A DNA stretch of 64,000 bases, taken from NCBI RefSeq assembly GCF_002837185.1, contig NZ_KZ477991.1:1-64000 (forward strand), read 5' to 3'. Shown one piece after another: positions 15,718 to 25,643 of the stretch (position 1 is its first letter; each line of letters begins with the position of its first letter). Position numbers and translations under genes: made by a program. The notes under the pieces were generated by a model. That model was not told where the DNA came from. It did no database searches and worked only from the letters and a program-made list of their open reading frames with translations. The DNA is from Pseudomonas fluorescens. Lineage in GTDB: Bacteria > Pseudomonadota > Gammaproteobacteria > Pseudomonadales > Pseudomonadaceae.

Positions 15718-16035
15718 ATGAAGTTTGTTTGCCCATCCGATGCGCTCGCGCAAAATGCCAGCCGCGGTTTCGAAATTGATGGCCAAAAGCTGTTTGCCGT
15801 ACGCCGGGAGGGTACTGCCTACTTTTACGTCAATCGCTGCCCACATCGCCGCGTATCACTGGAATGGGAACCCGATCAATTTCTCGACAAAAGCGCCAGC
15901 TTGATCCAGTGTGCAACCCACGGTGCACTATTTTTGATAGAAACTGGCGAATGCGTTTCCGGTCCCTGTGCTGGCCAACGTCTAATCACATTGCCCAGCA
16001 CGGAAGATGAGAATGGCTTATGGGTACAGGTTTAG
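15718..16035 (+). CDS. Rieske-type [2Fe-2S] ferredoxin
   Basis: The 105-residue soluble protein carries the Rieske cluster ligands as C41-x-H43 (CPH) and C65-x2-H68 (CATH), close to the minimum size for such a domain. It has no signal peptide, so it acts in the cytoplasm as a small electron carrier; the partner is not known. No good ribosome site precedes the ATG. It faces the cytochrome c gene and is divergent from hmuT. It may be the last backbone gene before the AT-rich region, since its base composition is intermediate. Confidence 0.85.
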   Translation: MKFVCPSDALAQNASRGFEIDGQKLFAVRREGTAYFYVNRCPHRRVSLEWEPDQFLDKSASLIQCATHGALFLIETGECVSGPCAGQRLITLPSTEDENGLWVQV

Positions 16036-16080
16036 CGTCAGCGGATATTATTAAACAAGCTATTGAACACGGGCGATCAT

Positions 16081-16386
16081 TTACTTTATGCCACTGAAGT
16101 ACTCCGCCAACACTTCAATCTTCCTGTCATCCATATCCTTCATGACTCGGTTCATTACCGTACCGTGCGATACGTTGTGCTTGTAAGCTTGCATCGCAGT
16201 ACGGAGAAATTCCTTTGAGCGCCCTTGTAACGAAGGAATAGTACCAATAGCCCCGCCTCGCCCCTCATACCCATGACAATTAACGCACCCATTGCTCGCC
16301 ATGATTCCGATGACGTTTTCTTCCGCTGCCGCCGTAGTCGCGCAGAGAAAAAACAGCATAAACATCAATCCTCGATTCAATACCAC
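16081..16386 (-). CDS. Secreted monoheme cytochrome c
   Basis: A single heme-attachment motif CVNCH (residues 35-39 with this start) follows a signal peptide ending near AAA-EE, and Met residues near 80 could be the axial ligand. The protein is a small class I c-type cytochrome of the periplasm. The start is uncertain: GTG at 16386 gives a normal basic signal peptide (VVLNRGLMFMLFFL), whereas the ATGs at 16365 and 16359 give ones without positive charge. It is divergent from the secreted protein and flavoprotein genes and would be a natural electron acceptor for the latter. Confidence 0.75.
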   Translation of the reverse strand: MVLNRGLMFMLFFLCATTAAAEENVIGIMASNGCVNCHGYEGRGGAIGTIPSLQGRSKEFLRTAMQAYKHNVSHGTVMNRVMKDMDDRKIEVLAEYFSGIK

Positions 16387-16597
16387 TCCATTACACCCTT
16401 GTATATTGATTAAACCATTAATACTACAAACAGCGAAATCCACGGCCCTTGGCACTATAACTACATGGCGCGCCAACCGACTGCTTATTAATTTATAGTG
16501 CGAAGTCTCGAAAGGTCAAGGACGATATTCACTTAAAAACAAATCAGCCACAACGGTACTAATAGCGAACCCTACGCATTGACAGTCAAACACCCTA

Positions 16598-16622
16598 TGT
16601 ACAAAAAAGATAGATTTGTACA
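16598..16622. promoter_or_regulatory. Palindromic operator candidate TGTACAAA-N9-TTTGTACA
   Basis: A perfect 8-bp inverted repeat with a 9-base spacer lies in the divergent gap between the cytochrome c gene (minus) and the secreted protein gene (plus). Its position and symmetry suggest a dimeric repressor or activator site serving both directions. No regulator gene is encoded nearby. Confidence 0.5.
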
Positions 16623-16765
16623 AATAAACACTTTGAAACATATTACAACTTGCCGATTATGAATCCTGTGGCCTTAACTATCGACTCGTGTAATCCCGCA
16701 CAACTAACGCATTAATGGGGTTACGCACCAACCATCGAATCACAGAAAAGTGGAAAAGGAATTTC

Positions 16766-17203
16766 ATGAAACGCTGCATAGCGCTGTCTATGATATCAAT
16801 CGCACTGAGCATCAGTGCTACCCAAGCCATGGCAGAGGATGCCAAGGCTGCCTTAGCGCCGCAGAAAGCTGTAGTGATAGTGTTCAATCCTCCCAAAGGC
16901 ATGGAGCAGGAATTTCTTGAATCTTTCACTAAAGAGCAAGCGGCGAACTTCAAAGCGCATGGCAGCAGTGACAAAAAAACGACTGAGTCCATTAACCTAA
17001 TTCCTACAAAATTAGGTGAGCCGCTCATTCATATCACAATACTCAAAGATAGAGCGGCCTACGAAAAAACCTTCCAAGCATTTGGTCCACAAGAAAACCG
17101 GGGCGCTTATGTAGGCAAGCACTCAGAAAAGTACGGCGACCTGAACATCCCTAAAATATATCTTCAAAACTCGCAATCTTACTTTGCAGACGTAGTTAAA
17201 TAA
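16766..17203 (+). CDS. Secreted protein of unknown function
   Basis: The 145-residue product starts with a Sec signal peptide (MKRCIALSMISIALSISATQ, cleaved near AMA-ED), after an AAAGGAA ribosome site. I therefore preferred the ATG at 16766 to an upstream in-frame ATG. The mature part has alternating beta and alpha segments (AVVIVFNPP, then helix, then PLIHITILKD), suggesting a dimeric alpha-beta barrel (ferredoxin-like) fold as in ABM or EthD domains. This is a guess from pattern only. It has no cysteines in the mature part. It lies upstream of the flavocytochrome-like gene and may be co-expressed with it. Confidence 0.7.
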   Translation: MKRCIALSMISIALSISATQAMAEDAKAALAPQKAVVIVFNPPKGMEQEFLESFTKEQAANFKAHGSSDKKTTESINLIPTKLGEPLIHITILKDRAAYEKTFQAFGPQENRGAYVGKHSEKYGDLNIPKIYLQNSQSYFADVVK

Positions 17204-17339
17204 CTTCTTTCTTGTTCCATCTTCATAGAGAGCTTGCTGCCAAGGCCTGTTAAGGGCACTAAATCCGATTGGGTTTTTAGTGTACCGCTTGGCATACGCA
17301 AGCAGGCGTCAGGCAGTACGTGTGAATTCGGAAGATACA

Positions 17340-18638
17340 ATGATAGATGATCGTAGAACTCTCATTAAATGGTTGATCACGGGCGCCGGAATAGCTGCAC
17401 TAGACGCAGCGGCAGGCCCTTCAATTAAGATGTCACAGGCAAAAGTTTATAAAGTTGTAGTGGTGGGTGGGGGGTTTGCAGGTGCCACATTCGCTCGCAC
17501 GCTAAAACGTCTCATACCCAACACTGTAATAACATTAATTGAAGAGTATACGGAATACTTCTCGGGCCCGCTCAGTGCGGAGTGCCTGACAGGAAAACGT
17601 AATGAAGAGACCTTGACGTTCGACTATAAAAAGCTCGTATCTGAAGGGATAAATGTCGTGCATGAGCGTGCGCTGACAATTGATGCTACTCAAAAAATAG
17701 TAAAAACACCAAACACCACCCACCGGTACGATCGATGCATTGTGGCTGCTGGTATCGACTTTGATTTTGACCATATTAAGGGTCATAGCGAAGGGCTTGC
17801 TGATGTTTTTCCACACGCCTGGAAAGGGAAAGACCAGTTGAGTGCCCTGAAAAAACAACTGGAAGAAATGCCGGACGGCGGTACGGTTCTGATGTCGGCT
17901 CCCAACACAGAATACAGGTGTCCACCGGGGCCGTATGAGCGAGTGAGTCAGATCGCCGAATACCTTATCGCGCATAAGCCAAACTCAAAGATTATCTTCC
18001 TCGACTCCAAAGAGAGGTTTCCCAAGCAAGCCCAGTTCGAATTGGCTTGGAAGCAGTTGTATGGGTACGGGACCGCAGAAAGCATCATTACCTGGATCGG
18101 CGCCCAACAGGGCGGAACGGTTACAGAATTGAGGCCGGACACGCGGGAACTTGTGTGCCAGGCAGGGGCTTTCAAGGGCGATGTCATCAATATTATTCCG
18201 AGACAAAAAGCCGACCTTTTCACCGCTGCAAACGGCCTGACTGGCGAGAACGGTTGGTGCCCGGTAAATACACAGACATTCGAGTCTTTGAAGGTTGCGA
18301 ACGTTCATGTTATTGGCGACGCAGCAGACGCTCACAGCTTGCCAAAATCGGCATTCGCGGCCGCGTGTCAAGCACGGGTGTGTGCGCTGGCCGTGTATTC
18401 GCTGTTCAATCAATTGCCTCTCATGACACCAGAGTATATGAATGTCTGCTTCAGCCTCTGTGGCACGCATTACGCGATTTCGGTAACAGTGAGTTATCAA
18501 CAAAATCCGCAAACAAATAAAATTGATGTTATTTCAACAAATATTACACCTCTCGACGCCCCGAAAACACAGTATGTGAGTGAAGTGCAATCCGCCTATG
18601 CCATGTTTAACAGCATGGCCAGCGGTGCTTTTGGCTAG
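17340..18638 (+). CDS. FAD subunit of a flavocytochrome c sulfide dehydrogenase-like enzyme
   Basis: This 432-residue protein belongs to the FccB family, which oxidises sulfide (or polysulfide) and passes electrons to a c-type cytochrome. A twin-arginine-like leader (DDRRTLIKWLITGAG, 3-17) is followed by the FAD motif VVGGGFAGAT (41-50). Cys194 in RCPPGPYERVS and Cys370 in YMNVCFSL correspond to the redox disulfide pair known in the family, and the C-terminus ends in the usual YAMFN...FG. I chose the ATG at 17340 (GGAAG site) over one 60 bases upstream. The cytochrome c gene at 16081 could encode the partner. The true substrate is not shown by sequence. Confidence 0.82.
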   Translation: MIDDRRTLIKWLITGAGIAALDAAAGPSIKMSQAKVYKVVVVGGGFAGATFARTLKRLIPNTVITLIEEYTEYFSGPLSAECLTGKRNEETLTFDYKKLVSEGINVVHERALTIDATQKIVKTPNTTHRYDRCIVAAGIDFDFDHIKGHSEGLADVFPHAWKGKDQLSALKKQLEEMPDGGTVLMSAPNTEYRCPPGPYERVSQIAEYLIAHKPNSKIIFLDSKERFPKQAQFELAWKQLYGYGTAESIITWIGAQQGGTVTELRPDTRELVCQAGAFKGDVINIIPRQKADLFTAANGLTGENGWCPVNTQTFESLKVANVHVIGDAADAHSLPKSAFAAACQARVCALAVYSLFNQLPLMTPEYMNVCFSLCGTHYAISVTVSYQQNPQTNKIDVISTNITPLDAPKTQYVSEVQSAYAMFNSMASGAFG

Positions 18639-18651
18639 CGATTGACAACTG

Positions 18652-18680
18652 AAGTGACGACACAAAGAACGCTCATAGAA
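18652..18680 (+). promoter_or_regulatory. Candidate promoter of the seven-gene AT-rich operon
   Basis: TTGACA (18652-18657) is followed after 17 bases by ATAGAA (or after 16 by CATAGA). The start codon of the first gene follows only about 15 bases later, so the leader would be very short. The -35 box is perfect and the -10 box poor. Confidence 0.35.
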
Positions 18681-18694
18681 ACGGATGTTAACTC

Positions 18695-19474
18695 ATGAAT
18701 TTCATCGAAGAAGACTTTTTAAGTCGTCTAACAGACAAGGATATCGTTTATACGCTCGCGCTAACTGGATCAACAGCCAGAGGCGAGGCACGCAAGAATA
18801 CCTCTCGACATGACTACACATCAGACATTGATGTACTTTGCCTCATAGACCCTAAAGATATACCGCAAACCTTGTGTTGTAAGAACGCCTACGAGAAGTG
18901 CAGTTCGCTGATATTGATGAGCAGCGAAGCTTTAAAGCACCCTTCAAACGCAATCCTTTCCATGGAGCTTGATTGGTTCGGAGACAATGGTCTTCTCTTG
19001 CAGAAACCTGACTTTAGTGGACACCGGGCAGATGAATTCCTGGCGTACCAGACACAACCTCTGGCGTACTACAATGCTCAATTAACGAACTCAACAGCAC
19101 ACGTCGCACGCAGGCTTTATAGCAAAATTTGTATCACCTGTTTAAAACTACTCTATCTATCTGAATATCCAGAACGACGACGTTTCGTATTCGAACACGA
19201 ATTGATACCTCACCGCTTTCCCGAGGTAAGCACTGCCCTTGTCGAACACATTGTCAACCGAGACCTGCCAGATGATCAGTTGGAATCTGTCGCACAGCAT
19301 CTAAAAAACTTAATTACACAGCACAGGCTTATAACTGAAAGTGCGACTTTCCTTGATTCGACAGCCCTCTATTTCTCAAGTGAAGACCAGCAGGCCGACA
19401 AGATAATCCAAGCCGTATTTTTGGAAAACAACAAGTTAAGTAAACCAGAAAGCTTATTTTTAAGAGCCCATTGA
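18695..19474 (+). CDS. Nucleotidyltransferase-fold protein
   Basis: The N-terminus has the polymerase-beta-type nucleotidyltransferase signature: GS at 25-26 in LTGSTARGE, then D44 and D46 in YTSDIDVL, the expected metal-binding pair. The C-terminal 150 residues look all-helical. Such 259-residue proteins transfer AMP or another nucleotide to small molecules or proteins, and some inactivate antibiotics. The substrate here is unknown. It is the first gene of the AT-rich operon and its stop is directly followed by the next ATG (TGAATG), so it is co-translated. It could serve biosynthesis or self-protection. Confidence 0.7.
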   Translation: MNFIEEDFLSRLTDKDIVYTLALTGSTARGEARKNTSRHDYTSDIDVLCLIDPKDIPQTLCCKNAYEKCSSLILMSSEALKHPSNAILSMELDWFGDNGLLLQKPDFSGHRADEFLAYQTQPLAYYNAQLTNSTAHVARRLYSKICITCLKLLYLSEYPERRRFVFEHELIPHRFPEVSTALVEHIVNRDLPDDQLESVAQHLKNLITQHRLITESATFLDSTALYFSSEDQQADKIIQAVFLENNKLSKPESLFLRAH

Positions 19475-20023
19475 ATGATCGATATAATAACGACCCTCGG
19501 CCCTATCGGAACCGATTCACACACACAAGCTGCGAGTACTGGATCCACTGTATCTTTACACTCGACCTTTCATGCAGCGATTGAACATGCAAAAAAATGC
19601 AAGACGAGGTTATTAGTGCCGGCGGGATTTAGAGAATACCGCGACGGTAAACAATTTTCGTGGGTAGATTTTCACTTCGAATACTTGGATTCATTCGAAC
19701 TACAAAGCGTCTGGTTTGAAAAAACACTGCCTATGGCGTTATTGCACAAGTCTTATGACTCGATTGCACTACACCCGTCAACGTGCTCACTAATAGCCGA
19801 CCTGAACTCATACAAAGAAATTAAATACACTCAATCGAAAATCCATGCCTATCAACTCTACAAAAAAGGAGAGGTAGCCTCGGCGTTGACGAGCAGCTGG
19901 ACATTTGATCAAGCACTCGATGAACTTTATATTAAATCCCAATTTACTCCAACAATGGTGTGGTGCCTTTACCGCGCGAATTCTTTAGACATGGGCGTTT
20001 CCCGATCAACTGGATCGCCTTAA
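19475..20023 (+). CDS. BacA-type prephenate decarboxylase-like protein
   Basis: The start TLGPIGTDSHTQA (7-19) matches the N-terminus of the prephenate dehydratase fold, and SLHSTFHAAIE (27-37) continues the match to BacA, the bacilysin prephenate decarboxylase. Near the end, where dehydratases carry the catalytic TRF motif, this protein has PTMVWCL (159-165). That resembles the altered end of BacA. The 182-residue length also fits a stand-alone BacA/AerD-type enzyme, lacking the ACT domain of phenylalanine-pathway enzymes. I infer a non-aromatising decarboxylation of prephenate. It sits inside a seven-gene operon with an exporter, as bacA does. Similarity was judged by eye. Confidence 0.6.
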   Translation: MIDIITTLGPIGTDSHTQAASTGSTVSLHSTFHAAIEHAKKCKTRLLVPAGFREYRDGKQFSWVDFHFEYLDSFELQSVWFEKTLPMALLHKSYDSIALHPSTCSLIADLNSYKEIKYTQSKIHAYQLYKKGEVASALTSSWTFDQALDELYIKSQFTPTMVWCLYRANSLDMGVSRSTGSP

Positions 20024-20086
20024 CGGTCGATAACTGTAGCTCATTATTGGAAAACCCAGCGGCGGACATAATCAAAAGGAAAGGCA

Positions 20087-21241
20087 GTGAAGCGTACCAA
20101 AAACCAGATCATCATACTGCTTTGCTTTGTAATTTCGCTCACTGAGCGGTTCACCCAAGCCTCAATACCGCTCATTGTTAACCATTTGGATCTTTCCGGG
20201 TTAGAAATGTCGTTATTTCTAAGTGCCATGTCCGCATCGACTGTTTTCATAGGCGTGGCCATTGCCCCCTGTATAGACAGTTTTAGTCAAAAACGTTTTC
20301 TTTGCTTGATTGGTTTATTTACGCTCATTGCATCTGTATCGTTCTTCTTGTTCAACCGTAACGAAGCGCTCATTTGGGGCTGTCTGTTGACATTCAACAT
20401 CGGCGCTATTCTTCGCATAATAAACTTTAAACGACTTTCAACCATAAACCTCGAAGTAGATAAATCCAAATTATCCCACGCACATACTCGCATGCAGTTA
20501 TCCATAACGCTAGCGATGGCACTGGCGCCATTACTCCTGGCCGTGACGGCGGCTGACAACTATCTGCACCTTGCCTTTTGCCTGCTCATAAGTTCCGTTA
20601 TTTTAAGCAGCTGTACGTCGTCGGTCGCGCCTCACTCAAAACATTCTACCTCAGTTAAACCCGCAACCATCACAGGTTGCGCGATGACGTCGGCTCACCA
20701 CTTTATCTTTATCGGCATGCTATTGTCAGGACTATTTCTAAGCATACTACTCAGATATTGCCAAAGCATATCAATTAATCCCACTCAACTTTACTCAACC
20801 ATTTTGTTCTCGCAAGTCATCGGCTTAATTATTGCCAATAGTATGTTCGAGCGCTTTTTCAATCATCGCTTCAACCGATACGAGCTGCTAATCATCAGCA
20901 TAGTTGTCGCTGAATCGGCTTTTATTTATACGACGTCGTTCGTGGTGGTAAACACGCTTTCCTTTATCATCGGATTCTCATTTCAAATTATGTTCCTTAG
21001 GTCTCATAACCAGTTTCAGCGCATGATCCCTCATGGTTTGACCGCTAAAGCAAATGGCACGCGTGGACTGTATACGTTTGCAGGAGTCACCATCGGTTAC
21101 TTCGCGGGGCCTCTACTGTATGAGTTTGGCGGAACGCCTTTATCTTTCGCGACATGCAGCGTCGTAGCGTTGCTTCTCTTTAGAGTTCTCCATCATCTAC
21201 GCTTAAACAATTCACTCGATTATGCAAGGCCTGGCATCTAG
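20087..21241 (+). CDS. MFS transporter
   Basis: The 384-residue protein has about eleven to twelve hydrophobic segments in two halves, with a central loop around 180-200, as in major facilitator permeases. A conserved-type charged loop (FSQKRF, 66-71) follows helix 2. It starts with GTG at 20087 after a strong AAAGGAAAGG site. The transported compound is unknown. Its place among biosynthetic genes suggests export of the operon's product and perhaps self-resistance, as BacE does for bacilysin. It shows no fusion or truncation. Confidence 0.78.
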   Translation: MKRTKNQIIILLCFVISLTERFTQASIPLIVNHLDLSGLEMSLFLSAMSASTVFIGVAIAPCIDSFSQKRFLCLIGLFTLIASVSFFLFNRNEALIWGCLLTFNIGAILRIINFKRLSTINLEVDKSKLSHAHTRMQLSITLAMALAPLLLAVTAADNYLHLAFCLLISSVILSSCTSSVAPHSKHSTSVKPATITGCAMTSAHHFIFIGMLLSGLFLSILLRYCQSISINPTQLYSTILFSQVIGLIIANSMFERFFNHRFNRYELLIISIVVAESAFIYTTSFVVVNTLSFIIGFSFQIMFLRSHNQFQRMIPHGLTAKANGTRGLYTFAGVTIGYFAGPLLYEFGGTPLSFATCSVVALLLFRVLHHLRLNNSLDYARPGI

Positions 21242-21289
21242 GAAGACATTGATGTCGTTTCAACTAAAACTCACTCAGAGGCATACATA

Positions 21290-21940
21290 ATGATAGCCCC
21301 TTGGAAGTTTCAATGTAAAAATCTTCACATTCAATTTGAAGCAAACTTTTCTGTTAAAGCGCCAAAGCCTGCCCTCTCGCAGGCGCTGCGTGTGTTGCCT
21401 ACTGATGCTGCGATCAGCAATACCTTTCTTCTGACCATTTCAAAAATGCGTTCAACTTGCTTTACTGATGAAGACTTCATCACAAGTCATGAAGCCATAT
21501 TAAAAGTCGCCATTACATGGCGCTCTGCTCGTTACTATTTCCCGGTACTTGCCGTAGTCGACGCCCCTCACTCCATCGCGCGCGGAGCATTATTGGGCTA
21601 CATGAAAGACATTGGCACTGTAGAAATGGAAAACGACCATAGTCAATTTGATTGGAACCGCACGGAAAACTCTATAACCTTAAGTTCCACTGACAACGAG
21701 ATTGAAGATATCTTATTACTCCCACATCTCACATTTCGGAACTACCGCACCCCTGACGTAGGGGTAAAAGGATTATCGACACTGGATATCCAAGATCACA
21801 CATGTTCGCCGACCTTGCGATGCACGTCGGCAGTGGTCAACCTTCCCTTTCTGGAAAATTTCGGAATATCACCCATCACGCCGTATAAGCTCGGCAAGTT
21901 GTCAGAATCTTTCACGCTGAATGGTTGCAACTATGCATAA
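21290..21940 (+). CDS. Acetoacetate-decarboxylase-superfamily-like protein
   Basis: I do not recognise the 216-residue protein with certainty. Its middle part (EAILKVAITW, then YYFPVLAVVDAPHSIARGA and LLGYMKDIG) follows the pattern of acetoacetate decarboxylase-like enzymes. There the GREIWGFPKK segment carries the Schiff-base lysine; Lys106 in GYMKDIG would be its equivalent. The last 35 residues also fit that fold. Members act on acetoacetate or, in secondary metabolism, on other oxo acids by decarboxylation, dehydration or aldol chemistry. It has no signal peptide. The last bases overlap the next gene. Confidence 0.5.
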   Translation: MIAPWKFQCKNLHIQFEANFSVKAPKPALSQALRVLPTDAAISNTFLLTISKMRSTCFTDEDFITSHEAILKVAITWRSARYYFPVLAVVDAPHSIARGALLGYMKDIGTVEMENDHSQFDWNRTENSITLSSTDNEIEDILLLPHLTFRNYRTPDVGVKGLSTLDIQDHTCSPTLRCTSAVVNLPFLENFGISPITPYKLGKLSESFTLNGCNYA

Positions 21941-22754
21941 CATCCTTTTTGTTGGAAAAGGATTGATTACTACTTCACTGGCCGAACGCCTCAGTAGTGC
22001 TGACTGGAAAGTTGACTATTACTCTCGGACAGAGACAAGATTGAACTTTATCGATCTGTCGAAATATGACTATATTGTTTCTTGTCTTCCCAACGCAGAA
22101 ATTTCTACACGCGTCTGGAGCAATATTTTAGCAGTCGCGCTTGCCAGCCATGCATTCCAAACAGTGTTCATTGAACTTTCGACACTCACCTGTGAAGCCA
22201 TCAAGCAAATAGGAAACTCCTTTAACGACGAACGACTGAATTTTATTGAGGCCCCTTTTACTGGTAGCAAAACAGGATCACTGAAAGGGAGCCTGATATA
22301 TTTCGCCTATTCGCAAAGGGTAGACACTCAACATGACCCATTCCTTAATACGACCTCTTCGAAAGTCTATACGTTCGACCATATCGGCGCAGCCACTCAA
22401 TTTAAATTATTCTATAACCTGTGGGGACTGACTGCGCTCGGGCTTTTAGGTCAAATGCTAAGGCTACTGGAGGCGCTGCCTCAGAACGAACTGGCTGCCA
22501 CGATAATCACTTCACACGATGACTTCTGGATGAACTCAATTGCGCAACAAAAGCTTAATCAAAGCCTGGCACGAAACCATCAGGATATACATTGCAAGTT
22601 AAAATATGCAAAAAAGGACATAAAGTACGCCTTGGATGAATTCAGCGATTACAAATTAGACTTGTCTCACTGCCTATTTTCTATTTTAGAGTCGGATCAA
22701 AGCATCGGCTATGACGAATTGGATTTCACCGCAATGAGTGAATTATTCAAATGA
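21933..22754 (+). CDS. 3-hydroxyisobutyrate-dehydrogenase-like (6PGDH fold) oxidoreductase
   Basis: A Rossmann nucleotide-binding start (ILFVGKGLITTSLAERL, 4-20), a substrate-loop motif PFTGSKTGSLKG (108-119) and Lys158 in FKLFYNLW match the beta-hydroxyacid dehydrogenase/imine reductase family. The expected catalytic lysine is present, and the usual glycine-rich motif is altered (GKG for GLG). The 273-residue length fits. I chose the ATG at 21933 because it gives the normal short lead before the first strand; another ATG lies at 21921. The start overlaps the previous gene and the end overlaps the next (ATGA). The substrate is unknown. Confidence 0.68.
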   Translation: MHNILFVGKGLITTSLAERLSSADWKVDYYSRTETRLNFIDLSKYDYIVSCLPNAEISTRVWSNILAVALASHAFQTVFIELSTLTCEAIKQIGNSFNDERLNFIEAPFTGSKTGSLKGSLIYFAYSQRVDTQHDPFLNTTSSKVYTFDHIGAATQFKLFYNLWGLTALGLLGQMLRLLEALPQNELAATIITSHDDFWMNSIAQQKLNQSLARNHQDIHCKLKYAKKDIKYALDEFSDYKLDLSHCLFSILESDQSIGYDELDFTAMSELFK

Positions 22755-23863
22755 CCGGATTACGCCCGATCACCCGTCAAGCGACAAATACACTGGCGCT
22801 AGCTAAATATCCCGGCGCACAACCTCACTGGGTAGCGGATATGGGTTTTGCAACGCCAGACCCCATACTTTCTGCCGTCAGAGAAAGAATTGAAGAGGGG
22901 CATTTTTCCTATCCAAACATTCCAAGTTCTGTCTACAAATCCATTCAACAATGGTGCATAAAGCAGTATGATTGGGGCATACGAGAAGAATGGATTGTTA
23001 TAGTTCCTAATACAATATCGGGTGTTCGAATCTCTATCAAGAGCACATGCCCCCATGGGACCATTGCTGTGCAGTCGCCTAACTACGGCAAGCTGCTTAA
23101 TTTAAGCAAGGGATTTAATTTTACGCAGTGGGCAATAGCGCTGACCGAGAACAGCAAGCCGTTCACGACTAGCGATCTCGGTCAAATTAGGCGGACCAGG
23201 CCATCGGCAATTATTCTCTGCAACCCTACTAATCCGACCGGCATTGTTTCAACCCGAGAGGAGCTTGAAAGGCTAGCATTCAATATCAAAGATCTTGACA
23301 CAGTCGTTATTTCGGATGAGGCTCACGCGGATATAATTCTCGGTGACTGTCGTCATATTCCAGCGGGATCAATAAAGGGACTGGAAAACAAATCTATTAC
23401 GCTTCTATCGCCTAGTAAGACTTTTAATTTAGCTGGCATATCCGTAGGCTATGCCGTTATCCCATCCACAACTATTCGCGAGAAGTTTAAAGAGACCCAG
23501 GCATTTTTTGCCACCGGTATAAACGCGTTGGGGCTCGTGGCGCTTGAAAGTGCTTACTTCAATTGCTCCAATTGGCTCCAGTCATTGCTGCAGCAGTTGA
23601 AGATCAACCAGAACATCATCCAAACTACGCTGCGTCATACGTCCCTTAATTACAGCCCTTCAGAAGCAACCTACCTTGCATGGATTGATACTAGGGCGGC
23701 CGACGGGAACGTTTTTGCCAAACTTCTGCAAGCAGGCGTCGCAGTATCCGACGGTCACGAGTTTGGTTCGCCCGGCTGGATCAGATTTAATTTCGCTTGC
23801 CCGCAAGATCAGCTGGCGACGGCGACATCCACGTTCTTAGATTTATTCAGGAGTATTAAATGA
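22751..23863 (+). CDS. MalY/PatB-type PLP-dependent aminotransferase or C-S lyase
   Basis: The 370-residue fold-type I enzyme has NPTNPTG at 158-164, Asp189 in ISDEAHADI (pairs with the PLP ring nitrogen) and the PLP lysine K223 in SPSKTFNLAG. Near the end, RFNFA gives the carboxylate-binding Arg. SPSKTFN and SDEAHAD are typical of MalY/PatB cystathionine beta-lyases rather than of aspartate aminotransferases, though some members act as transaminases in secondary metabolism. It overlaps both neighbours by four bases (ATGA). In this operon it could transaminate an oxo acid made from prephenate, which is inference. Confidence 0.8.
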   Translation: MTGLRPITRQATNTLALAKYPGAQPHWVADMGFATPDPILSAVRERIEEGHFSYPNIPSSVYKSIQQWCIKQYDWGIREEWIVIVPNTISGVRISIKSTCPHGTIAVQSPNYGKLLNLSKGFNFTQWAIALTENSKPFTTSDLGQIRRTRPSAIILCNPTNPTGIVSTREELERLAFNIKDLDTVVISDEAHADIILGDCRHIPAGSIKGLENKSITLLSPSKTFNLAGISVGYAVIPSTTIREKFKETQAFFATGINALGLVALESAYFNCSNWLQSLLQQLKINQNIIQTTLRHTSLNYSPSEATYLAWIDTRAADGNVFAKLLQAGVAVSDGHEFGSPGWIRFNFACPQDQLATATSTFLDLFRSIK

Positions 23864-24855
23864 AAATTCTCATAACTGGAGGCGCCGGCTACATAGGCAG
23901 CACAATTTGCTTGGCACTTGCCGACGCCGGGCATCATCCGGTTATCCTTGATGAGCAGCCTTGCCCCACTGAAAAAGCCTCTGGGACGGTTTCATACTAT
24001 CAAGGTGATATTTCTGACCGACAACTTCTCACGCAGATTGCAAAGGCTCATCCTGACCTTTCCTTGGTCGTTCATTGTGCAGCAAAAATTGACGTCGCCG
24101 AATCCATAACACAACCAGACACTTATTATGAAAATAATTTTTCAAAGTCAGTAAGCATGGTCAACCATCTGCTTGATTTGGGCGTCAATAAGTTAATTTT
24201 AAGCGGAACTGCAGCTCTTTACAGCGCGGACAATGCACATCGCTTTGACGAGCATTCAAACCCTGTCCCAATGAGTCCCTATGCCAGATCCAAATACTTT
24301 CTTGAACTGGCACTCAAAGATATTTCTAACGCAAGGGACTTTCAATTTCTCACTTTCCGATATTTCAACCCCATTGGCAGTGATCACTCATTCAGAACGG
24401 GCTTCAGAGGCGACAATAAAAGCAGTCTTTTAAATTCGCTGATCCAATGCGCAGCATCAAGGAAGCCATTTCAAATCAACGGCACTGACTGGAATACTCG
24501 GGATGGTTCTACGGTCCGGGACTTTGTGGACGTCGCAGACCTTGCCGCCGCACACGTGCTGGCTGCGCTTGCCTTTAACAACAATAGTTTATCGGTGCCG
24601 CTGAACCGGTTTGGAATGCCTGTCATCAACCTGGGTTCCGAGCGAGGCGTTACTGTAGAGGAGTTTGTGCTGGCATTCATGAGTGCCACTAAATCTGAAT
24701 TGGTCGTAAACAGGGCCGGGCGACGTCCGGGCGACATCATTGGCGGTTATGCATCGAGTAAGCTGGCCCGCGAGTTGTTGGGGTGGGCACCTTCAACCCC
24801 ACTTCAGACTTCCATTCTTAATTCGATCCGTTGGGCCACCACCTTAAACAAGTAG
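23860..24855 (+). CDS. UDP-glucose 4-epimerase-like SDR protein
   Basis: This extended short-chain dehydrogenase has TGGAGYIG at 6-13, Ser115 and the YxxxK pair Tyr141/Lys145. RYFNPIGSD and the RDFVDVADLA segment are typical of GalE-like NDP-sugar epimerases. The length (331) is normal for GalE. It is the last gene of the AT-rich operon, overlapping the previous one by four bases, and its 3' part is more GC-rich than the rest. Whether it acts on a nucleotide sugar or on a non-sugar product of the operon cannot be told from sequence. Confidence 0.8.
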   Translation: MKILITGGAGYIGSTICLALADAGHHPVILDEQPCPTEKASGTVSYYQGDISDRQLLTQIAKAHPDLSLVVHCAAKIDVAESITQPDTYYENNFSKSVSMVNHLLDLGVNKLILSGTAALYSADNAHRFDEHSNPVPMSPYARSKYFLELALKDISNARDFQFLTFRYFNPIGSDHSFRTGFRGDNKSSLLNSLIQCAASRKPFQINGTDWNTRDGSTVRDFVDVADLAAAHVLAALAFNNNSLSVPLNRFGMPVINLGSERGVTVEEFVLAFMSATKSELVVNRAGRRPGDIIGGYASSKLARELLGWAPSTPLQTSILNSIRWATTLNK

Positions 24856-24866
24856 ATTGGGCGTGA

Positions 24867-24887
24867 CCTGGTCGATGCGTGACCAGG
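24867..24887 (+). terminator. Hairpin after the AT-rich operon
   Basis: A perfect 7-bp stem (CCTGGTC and GACCAGG) with a seven-base loop starts 12 bases after the epimerase stop. It is followed by CTTCGCC, not a T run, so it may be a weak or Rho-assisted terminator. Confidence 0.4.
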
Positions 24888-24929
24888 CTTCGCCGTCTGT
24901 CATGATGGTAAGGAAGTCCGCAACGACGT

Positions 24930-25643
24930 TCAATTACCCAGAACGATCTGGATCGGCCGCTCAATGCGTATTTCTTCGTGCGTGACCCGTACACCGTAAG
25001 CTAAGACTTCAACGCCGGCAGCCTTGGCTTCACGCAATGCGGTGGCATAGCCCGCGTCGATTTCCTCGGCGGGCCGCACCGCATCAACACCCGATAGACA
25101 CACGCAATACAACTGCACCGCCCGCACACCTTCACGCGCCAGGTAAGCCAGCTCCCGCAGGTGCTTGGCACCGCGTTGGGTCACCGCATCGGGGAACGCC
25201 GCCACTGAGCTGCCATCAAAGCCCAACGTGACACTTTTGACTTCGACAAATGCGGCCCCCTGCGGGTATTCCAGGCGAAAATCGATCCGGCTTTTTTCCT
25301 GACCGTAAGGCACTTCTCGCTTCAACCCAGTGAAACCGTTGAGCTCAGTGATGACGCCGGCGCGCAATGCCTCCTCGACCAACTGATTGGCGCGTGCCGT
25401 GTTGACGCATGCCAGCCGGCCCTGAGGCGTTTCGGCGATTTCCCAGGTGCCTGGCAACTTGCGCTTGGGGTCGGCGGAACGGCTGAACCACACCTGGCCA
25501 CCTTCAACCATGCAATTGAGCATCGAACCGGTGTTCGGGCAGTGAATGGTGAGCAACTCGCCGGTAACGGTTTCGATATCGGTGAGAAAGCGCTTGTAGC
25601 GGCGGATCAGCCGCCCTTCTTCGAGAGGAGGATGAAAACGCAT
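24930..25643 (-). CDS. sfsA: SfsA family DNA-binding protein/nuclease
   Basis: SfsA was named for sugar fermentation stimulation in E. coli. The family has an N-terminal OB-like DNA-binding part and a PD-(D/E)xK nuclease-like core. In the 237-residue protein the core is visible as [10 protein letters not shown] (about 117-126) followed by [10 protein letters not shown] (about 132-141), with the D and ExK residues in place. CPNTGSM near 36-42 is also diagnostic. It overlaps the aminotransferase gene by one base, so both form a unit. Its role in Pseudomonas is not established. Confidence 0.92.

What the first reader, a model, noticed from the sequence alone, without database searches (positions are those of the whole stretch)
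19475..20023. Prephenate-dehydratase fold without the TRF catalytic motif
The N-terminus carries the LGPxGTxSxxA pattern, but at the position of the dehydratase TRF motif the protein has PTMVWCL. This is close in kind to the altered end of BacA. The ACT regulatory domain is also absent. This argues for decarboxylation without aromatisation rather than phenylalanine synthesis.
Basis: partly seen in the sequence, partly recalled or inferred. Interest (0 to 1): 0.65.

Follow-up and report, generated by a model that had tools for sequence, protein, structure and literature searches.

The report
BacA-like prephenate enzyme without TRF
A small enzyme built like the one that makes phenylalanine has lost the parts that would finish an aromatic ring, and it sits in a horizontally acquired gene cluster that probably turns prephenate into an unusual, non-aromatic amino-acid product not yet identified.

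Summary
In detail: window 19475-20023(+) encodes a 182-aa protein with LGPIGTD at the start, PTMVWCL near the end and no ACT domain. An AlphaFold model matches prephenate dehydratases best (Foldseek E 3.8e-8; Z 12.0), although Pfam and NCBIfam do not recognise the protein. By profile it is nearer to BacA proteins in bac operons than to PheA. BacA has M-S-W where PheA has T-R-F; this family has M-[VIL]-W in 26 of 26 rows. The host keeps a TRF-bearing PheA elsewhere. The gene lies in an AT-rich 8.9-kb island missing from 6 of 6 sister sites examined, with an aminotransferase, a reductase, an acetoacetate-decarboxylase-like protein, a GalE-like epimerase, a nucleotidyltransferase and an MFS protein. 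Relatives in Streptomyces, Nocardia and others keep much of this set. Best reading: a divergent BacA-type, non-aromatising prephenate decarboxylase starting a new kind of prephenate-derived pathway; product unknown. Against it: 11 Bacilli genomes carry an M-x-W relative in their aro operon and have no PheA match over the Pfam cut-off, so dehydration is not excluded. Activity is untested.

The parts
19475..20023 (+). PDT-fold, BacA-like protein P0001, 182 aa, no ACT domain
19496..19516 (+). LGPIGTD motif (residues 8-14)
   Evidence: G9, P10 and T13 kept in PheA, BacA and family rows; D14 in 26 of 26 family and 11 of 11 aro-operon rows
19949..19969 (+). PTMVWCL (residues 159-165) at the place of TRF
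18695..19474 (+). nucleotidyltransferase-like protein (GSTARGE...SDID); its stop codon directly precedes the start of P0001
   Evidence: Pfam NTP_transf_2 E 5.3e-4, 20.8 bits, just under the cut-off of 21; similar to partner genes of relatives (with 78% probability, 110)
20087..21241 (+). MFS transporter
   Evidence: Pfam MFS_1 37.5 bits
21290..21940 (+). acetoacetate-decarboxylase-like protein
   Evidence: Pfam ADC E 1e-4, under the cut-off; similar genes in relatives
21921..22754 (+). 3-hydroxyisobutyrate-dehydrogenase-like reductase
   Evidence: Pfam NAD_binding_2; PDB 5je8; recurrent partner
22751..23863 (+). PatB/MalY-like PLP aminotransferase-family protein
23860..24855 (+). GalE-like epimerase keeping YxxxK, VRD and RRPGD
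16030..24955 (.). AT-rich, horizontally acquired island between a Rieske gene (15718-16035) and sfsA (24930-25643); edges approximate
   Evidence: about 45% against 60% GC; flanks lie 23-93 bases apart in 6 of 6 same-genus genomes examined
17280..18638 (+). FCSD-like flavoprotein inside the island; role in the pathway doubtful
   Evidence: Pfam FCSD_central; no tblastn match beside the 27 relatives

Best explanation
P0001 is a divergent, ACT-less member of the M-x-W branch of the prephenate dehydratase fold, the branch that holds BacA. It most likely binds prephenate and drives loss of the ring carboxylate. Because Thr and Arg of TRF are Met and Val, it should not be able to expel the 4-hydroxyl, so the ring is re-protonated and leaves as a dihydro-4-hydroxyphenylpyruvate-type keto acid. 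An invariant Lys (K122), where the PheA and BacA rows have Thr or Asn, may take over carboxylate binding from the lost Arg. The next genes would transaminate the keto acid (22751), reduce it (21921) and change the ring (ADC-like 21290; GalE-like 23860, perhaps on a nucleotide-tagged intermediate made by 18695). The MFS protein would export the product. Shown: fold, homology, residues, gene order, island. Inferred: substrate, reaction and every later step.
For: Model pLDDT 87.4; best matches are prephenate dehydratases 6vh5 (E 3.8e-8) and 3mwb (Z 12.0, 169 aligned, 5.4 A). The profile match to four BacA-type proteins runs through the C-terminal motif, E 7.9e-19, and to one BacA alone E 1.2e-11; to PheA it is weaker and stops before TRF. 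The two BacA are named by context: a 235-aa two-stretch cupin and an SDR follow each, as bacB (235 aa) and bacC in the review PMC9147277, which reports that BacA decarboxylates prephenate without aromatisation (passages). M161 and W163 in 26 of 26 family, 11 of 11 aro-operon and 2 of 2 BacA rows. All M-type rows are separated from PheA by a 100/100 branch. Aro-operon relatives sit between aroC and aroA, with tyrA and, in 9 of 11, a chorismate mutase domain, which ties the branch to the shikimate pathway. The host has its own PheA. Neighbour genes and their recurrence.
Against: No assay. Among 26 Bacilli genomes of one family, PF00800 over the cut-off (12) and the aro-operon M-type protein (11) never co-occur, as expected if an M-type protein can replace PheA. 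K122 and W63 are not in BacA, so the active site is not BacA's. No cupin or ATP-grasp match among the nine ORFs scanned at 16715-24855, nor among ten flanking ORFs. GalE-like and nucleotidyltransferase partners have no counterpart in the bac gene table of PMC9147277. No Pfam, NCBIfam or single-sequence PDB hit to PDT. The margin of PDT over other binding-protein folds is modest (2qmw 10.7 and Bug27 10.2 count as tied).
Confidence: 0.58

Rival explanations
1. P0001 acts on prephenate but still delivers phenylpyruvate: a dehydratase with a rebuilt active site, or a decarboxylase whose product then loses water, supplying Phe-type precursors to the cluster.
For: In 11 of 26 genomes of one Bacilli family the M-type relative stands in the aro operon (MFS[-CM]-aroC-PDT-like-aroA-tyrA-aroK, 11 of 11) and none of these 11 has a PF00800 match over the cut-off; 12 others have one and lack the relative; 3 have neither.
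Against: These genomes may simply be Phe auxotrophs (not tested), and the 11 are related, so this is not 11 independent events. The window's host keeps a normal PheA. Thr and Arg of TRF are both gone.
Confidence: 0.17
2. P0001 uses the same reaction on a prephenate analogue (for example a 4-amino-4-deoxy form) or another shikimate-derived keto acid.
For: Active-site differences from BacA (K122, W63); unusual partners (GalE-like, nucleotidyltransferase).
Against: No aminodeoxychorismate-type gene among the ORFs scanned in and beside the island; aro-operon relatives sit with plain prephenate genes.
Confidence: 0.13
3. P0001 is a non-enzymatic or differently acting protein of the periplasmic-binding-protein/PDT fold (ligand sensor, acylase like GqqA, or other).
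For: Many binding-protein chains match the model at Z about 8-10, and GqqA, a PDT homologue reported as an AHL acylase with prephenate dehydratase activity, is among the hits (7am0; paper PMC8192741 seen only in the search listing).
Against: PDT chains (6vh5, 3mwb, 2qmx) hold the first six Foldseek ranks and PDT entries the top three Z ranks; invariant residues in the family; clustering with biosynthetic genes.
Confidence: 0.12

Closest known systems
BacA, prephenate decarboxylase of bacilysin biosynthesis
   Same: Small, ACT-less PDT fold; TRF replaced by M-x-W; ENS motif gone; profile match through the end of the protein; aminotransferase, reductase and MFS genes close by, kinds also listed for the bac operon
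   Different: 25% identity in the profile alignment to one BacA; K122 and W63 not in BacA; no cupin or ligase found; GalE-like and nucleotidyltransferase partners instead. BacA is seen by Pfam PF00800 (36-38 bits), P0001 is not
PheA / prephenate dehydratase (PF00800)
   Same: Fold, LGP..T start and the conserved histidine H100
   Different: No TRF, no ENS, no ACT, below Pfam detection
AerD and SalX prephenate decarboxylases
   Same: PMC10157211 (passages) names salinosporamide A and aeruginoside as pathways with prephenate decarboxylases; the same kind of role is proposed here (the protein names are recalled)

Membership tests
Prephenate dehydratase (PF00800) | PDT fold | tested here: met
Prephenate dehydratase (PF00800) | Thr-Arg-Phe catalytic motif | tested here: not met
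   M-V-W at the aligned columns; 0 of 26 family rows have T-R-F
Prephenate dehydratase (PF00800) | Match over the Pfam gathering score | tested here: not met
   no PF00800 match at E 1 for P0001
Prephenate dehydratase (PF00800) | C-terminal ACT domain (usual) | tested here: not met
   182 aa, none found
Prephenate dehydratase (PF00800) | Makes phenylpyruvate | not testable with these tools
   needs an assay
BacA-type prephenate decarboxylase | Sequence-profile homology over the full length | tested here: met
   hhalign E 7.9e-19, 167 columns, against four BacA-type proteins, two of them of unknown function; E 1.2e-11 to one BacA
BacA-type prephenate decarboxylase | TRF replaced, M-x-W end, no ACT | tested here: met
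BacA-type prephenate decarboxylase | On BacA's side of the tree, apart from PheA | tested here: met
   100/100 branch separates PheA from all M-type rows and again in a reduced tree; the order within the M-type side is unresolved
BacA-type prephenate decarboxylase | BacB-like cupin isomerase and BacD ligase nearby | tested here: not met
   no cupin or ATP-grasp match among 19 ORFs scanned in and beside the island; a cupin-like gene, below the Pfam cut-off, is in the one Nocardia cluster scanned
BacA-type prephenate decarboxylase | Non-aromatising decarboxylation of prephenate | not testable with these tools
   needs an assay
AerD / SalX | Alignment with these proteins | not tested
   sequences not obtained

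The most novel reading that the evidence does not exclude
A new class of prephenate-derived pathway, shared by a Gram-negative island and by Streptomyces and Nocardia clusters: an M-x-W PDT-fold enzyme with an invariant active-site Lys makes a non-aromatic keto acid, a dedicated nucleotidyltransferase tags an intermediate with a nucleotide, and a GalE-like enzyme that still carries nucleotide-sugar contacts oxidises or epimerises the ring through that handle. The same enzyme branch has displaced PheA in one Bacilli lineage.
Probability: 0.15. Interest if true: 0.85.

Novelty: new variant of a known kind. Interest (0 to 1): 0.6.

Why it matters
Few prephenate decarboxylases are known, and Pfam missed each of the four family members scanned (P0001, L006, L009, L017). 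If right, this reveals an unrecorded group of gene clusters for non-aromatic, prephenate-derived products, with partner enzymes not listed for bacilysin. The Bacilli aro-operon relatives give a direct test of whether a PDT fold without TRF can still serve phenylalanine synthesis.

Tried and rejected
Single-sequence searches of Pfam, NCBIfam, PDB, viral contigs and PHROGs gave no family. A profile search of PDB by sequence gave only weak hits, among them AncCDT-1, the ancestral precursor of cyclohexadienyl dehydratase (E 1.2). A stravidin/amiclenomycin origin was considered through PMC13336041 (passages only; the word prephenate does not occur in its main text) and left without a sequence comparison. 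My first reading of the motif, T kept and R to M, was dropped for the M-V-W register; notebook entries still carry that reading and also call the MFS gene upstream of bacA 'bacE', which I now leave unnamed. The sister position of P0001 to the aro-operon proteins (97/99) is not robust (AU p 0.30 for the family as one clade; in the reduced tree the family is one group at 83/63), and warns of long branches. A model of the nucleotidyltransferase came out poor in its catalytic part (mean pLDDT 62.1), so no fold search was made with it. The adenylation-domain code of the Streptomyces clusters was read by eye from printed sequence and matched nothing I could name. The repeat scan of the island gave only short two-copy pairs, and terminator-like sites were fewer than in shuffles. 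Paper searches, judged by titles and the starts of abstracts only, except where passages are cited: 5 papers; 58 papers, 20 listed; 17; 9; 21; 0 with four of five terms; 306, 12 listed; 28, 12 listed. I saw no description of this gene set in them; the library is open-access only.

Full report
OBSERVATION. The ORF 19475-20023 (+) encodes 182 aa starting MIDIITTLGPIGTDSHTQA and ending FTPTMVWCLYRANSLDMGVSRSTGSP. It starts directly after the stop codon of the gene before it, and the genes from 21290 on overlap by 4 to 20 bases, so 18695-24855 reads as one run of genes on the + strand. Pfam and NCBIfam give no PDT or ACT match to it.

FAMILY. A protein search of plasmids found 5 records (3 Streptomyces, 2 Nocardia; 29-37% identity). 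A scan of genome contigs with their alignment gave 22 loci (Streptomyces, Kitasatospora, Streptacidiphilus, Arthrobacter, Nocardia, Paenibacillus). Of 194 genomes searched as relatives, the host included, only the host has the gene. In the 26 aligned rows (L025 and L028 dropped as duplicates) M161, W163 and K122 are in 26 of 26 and T160 in 24 of 26.

FOLD. With 21 rows from the window and genome contigs AlphaFold gives pLDDT 87.4, pTM 0.75. Foldseek: the first six ranks are chains of three prephenate dehydratase entries, best E 3.8e-8. The margin is therefore modest, with rmsd of 5-6 A for the PDT entries. The profile comparison with seven PheA domains (97.2%, E 3.4e-11) points the same way by sequence.

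BacA OR PheA. A profile search of 299 genomes of the Paenibacillus relative's class found 7 with a match. Two of them (L036, L039) are BacA by context: an MFS gene before, then a 235-aa cupin protein and an SDR, as bacB and bacC (gene table of PMC9147277). Their end reads SIPMSWS[LI]FGKG. Profile against four BacA-type proteins (two of them, L060 and L061, of unknown function): 99.1%, E 7.9e-19, aligned through PTMVWCLY / IPMSWSIF. Against one BacA alone E 1.2e-11; against the host's PheA alone E 1.8e-4. In a tree all M-type rows are separated from PheA by a 100/100 branch. The PheA rows are 7 of 12 candidate loci, picked by a pattern that demanded [TS]RF, so their TRF is by selection; a looser look found TRF in 3 of the other 5 (L045, L046, L049) and nothing for L043 and L048. 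The host's own PheA (L007, 218 bits) reads NSTRF. P0001 is therefore not the host's only PDT-fold candidate for phenylalanine.

ACTIVE SITE. T-R-F of PheA falls on M-[VIL]-W. The E-N of the ENS motif and the Gln six residues after the conserved His, invariant in the PheA alignment, are not kept in P0001 or the two BacA; the His itself (H100) is kept in all rows. W63 and K122 are common to the family (26 of 26) and the aro-operon proteins (11 of 11) but not to BacA; H67 is in 25 of 26, 11 of 11 and both BacA. That Thr and Arg of TRF are needed for dehydration is recalled from work on E. coli PheA, not from a call.

BACILLI ARO-OPERON RELATIVES. One match (L035, wider region L041) stands between aroC and aroA, followed by tyrA and aroK, after an MFS protein fused to a chorismate mutase domain. 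In the 26 genomes searched for its family, 11 have this protein (E below 1e-50), 12 have PF00800 over the cut-off, none has both and 3 have neither (G671, G575, G679). One of the 12 (G508) also has a weak match that is a different, BacA-like gene (L060). All 11 have the same gene order; the mutase domain is found in 9 of 11. All 11 end in DM[VI]W. Either these proteins take over phenylalanine synthesis, or the strains lack it and use prephenate for something else. This counts against a simple equation of 'no TRF' with 'no Phe', but it ties the branch to prephenate. It is one family, so not 11 independent events, and completeness was not told for these genomes.

CLUSTER. Neighbours by Pfam and PDB: nucleotidyltransferase-like, MFS, ADC-like, HIBADH-like, PatB-like aminotransferase, GalE-like (the nucleotidyltransferase has no PDB match). 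Around the 28 PDT-like loci (window plus 27, the two duplicates included), within the held flanks, profile searches found the nucleotidyltransferase in 25, the HIBADH-like reductase in 25 (L019 only partly), the GalE-like protein in 22 with E below 1e-100 (three more weak, distant or partial), aminotransferase in 7, ADC-like in 8 (L017 weak), P450 in 17, methyltransferase and amidohydrolase in 15 each. The profiles were built from these loci, so the E-values are not independent evidence of kinship; the positions are the evidence. Flanks differ in length and some contigs end early. Ten nucleotidyltransferases aligned keep both Asp of SD.D in 10 of 10 rows, although Pfam gave no family for the five relatives scanned (one of these began too late in the gene). 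Links between the three groups by profile: 94% and, for the window protein, 78%. GalE-like proteins keep PYAxxK, RPGD and [VI]RD in 22 of 23 rows; the exception, L014, is probably another epimerase. In two Nocardia plasmid records the PDT-like gene is annotated as ferredoxin and follows a P450; Pfam gives a ferredoxin domain just below its cut-off at the N-terminus of the one scanned, and other Nocardia rows show the same extension by eye. Three Streptomyces clusters scanned add NRPS genes.

ISLAND. GC falls from about 60% to about 45% between roughly 15.9 and 24.6 kb. In 6 of 6 same-genus genomes examined, window sequence ending at 15977-16034 and resuming at 24956-24982 lies 23-93 bases apart, without the island. 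These six are four of the five best foreign matches and two lower ones from the 149 genomes (host included) searched, all of which match the right flank at least in part.

LITERATURE. Bacilysin review PMC9147277 (passages): BacA decarboxylates prephenate without aromatisation; table of bac genes. PMC10157211 (passages): prephenate decarboxylases in suomilide, bacilysin, salinosporamide and aeruginoside pathways. Two primary papers on these enzymes are not held. I saw no paper describing this gene set (listings only).

VERDICT. Observation confirmed; interpretation partly supported and best stated as: a divergent BacA-type enzyme at the head of a new prephenate-derived pathway, activity unproven.

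Noticed in passing
L041:7836-9434 and equivalents in L058, L077-L082, L084: MFS transporter with a C-terminal type II chorismate mutase domain at the head of an aro operon: Pfam in one, mutase domain by tblastn in 9 of 11 genomes.
   Followed up: partly
26 Bacilli genomes, family of G327: PF00800 over the cut-off and the aro-operon M-x-W protein are mutually exclusive (12, 11, both 0, neither 3).
   Followed up: partly
window 16081-17203 and 17280-18638: The island also carries a small cytochrome c-like ORF (-), an unassigned 162-aa ORF with a signal-like start (by eye) and an FCSD-like flavoprotein; their link to the cluster is unknown.
   Followed up: no
L061:6645-12035 and L062: Another BacA-like protein (ending PMCFTLHG) between an ATP-grasp protein with an L-amino-acid-ligase C-terminal domain and an EamA exporter, with an aminotransferase nearby: a possible further prephenate-derived dipeptide pathway.
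   Followed up: partly
L060:7469-8113: A BacA-like protein ending LMLWSVF in a genome that also has a normal PheA.
   Followed up: no
L005, L006 and other Nocardia loci: PDT-like domain behind a ferredoxin-like N-terminus, next to a P450, with cupin-like, amidohydrolase and methyltransferase genes.
   Followed up: partly
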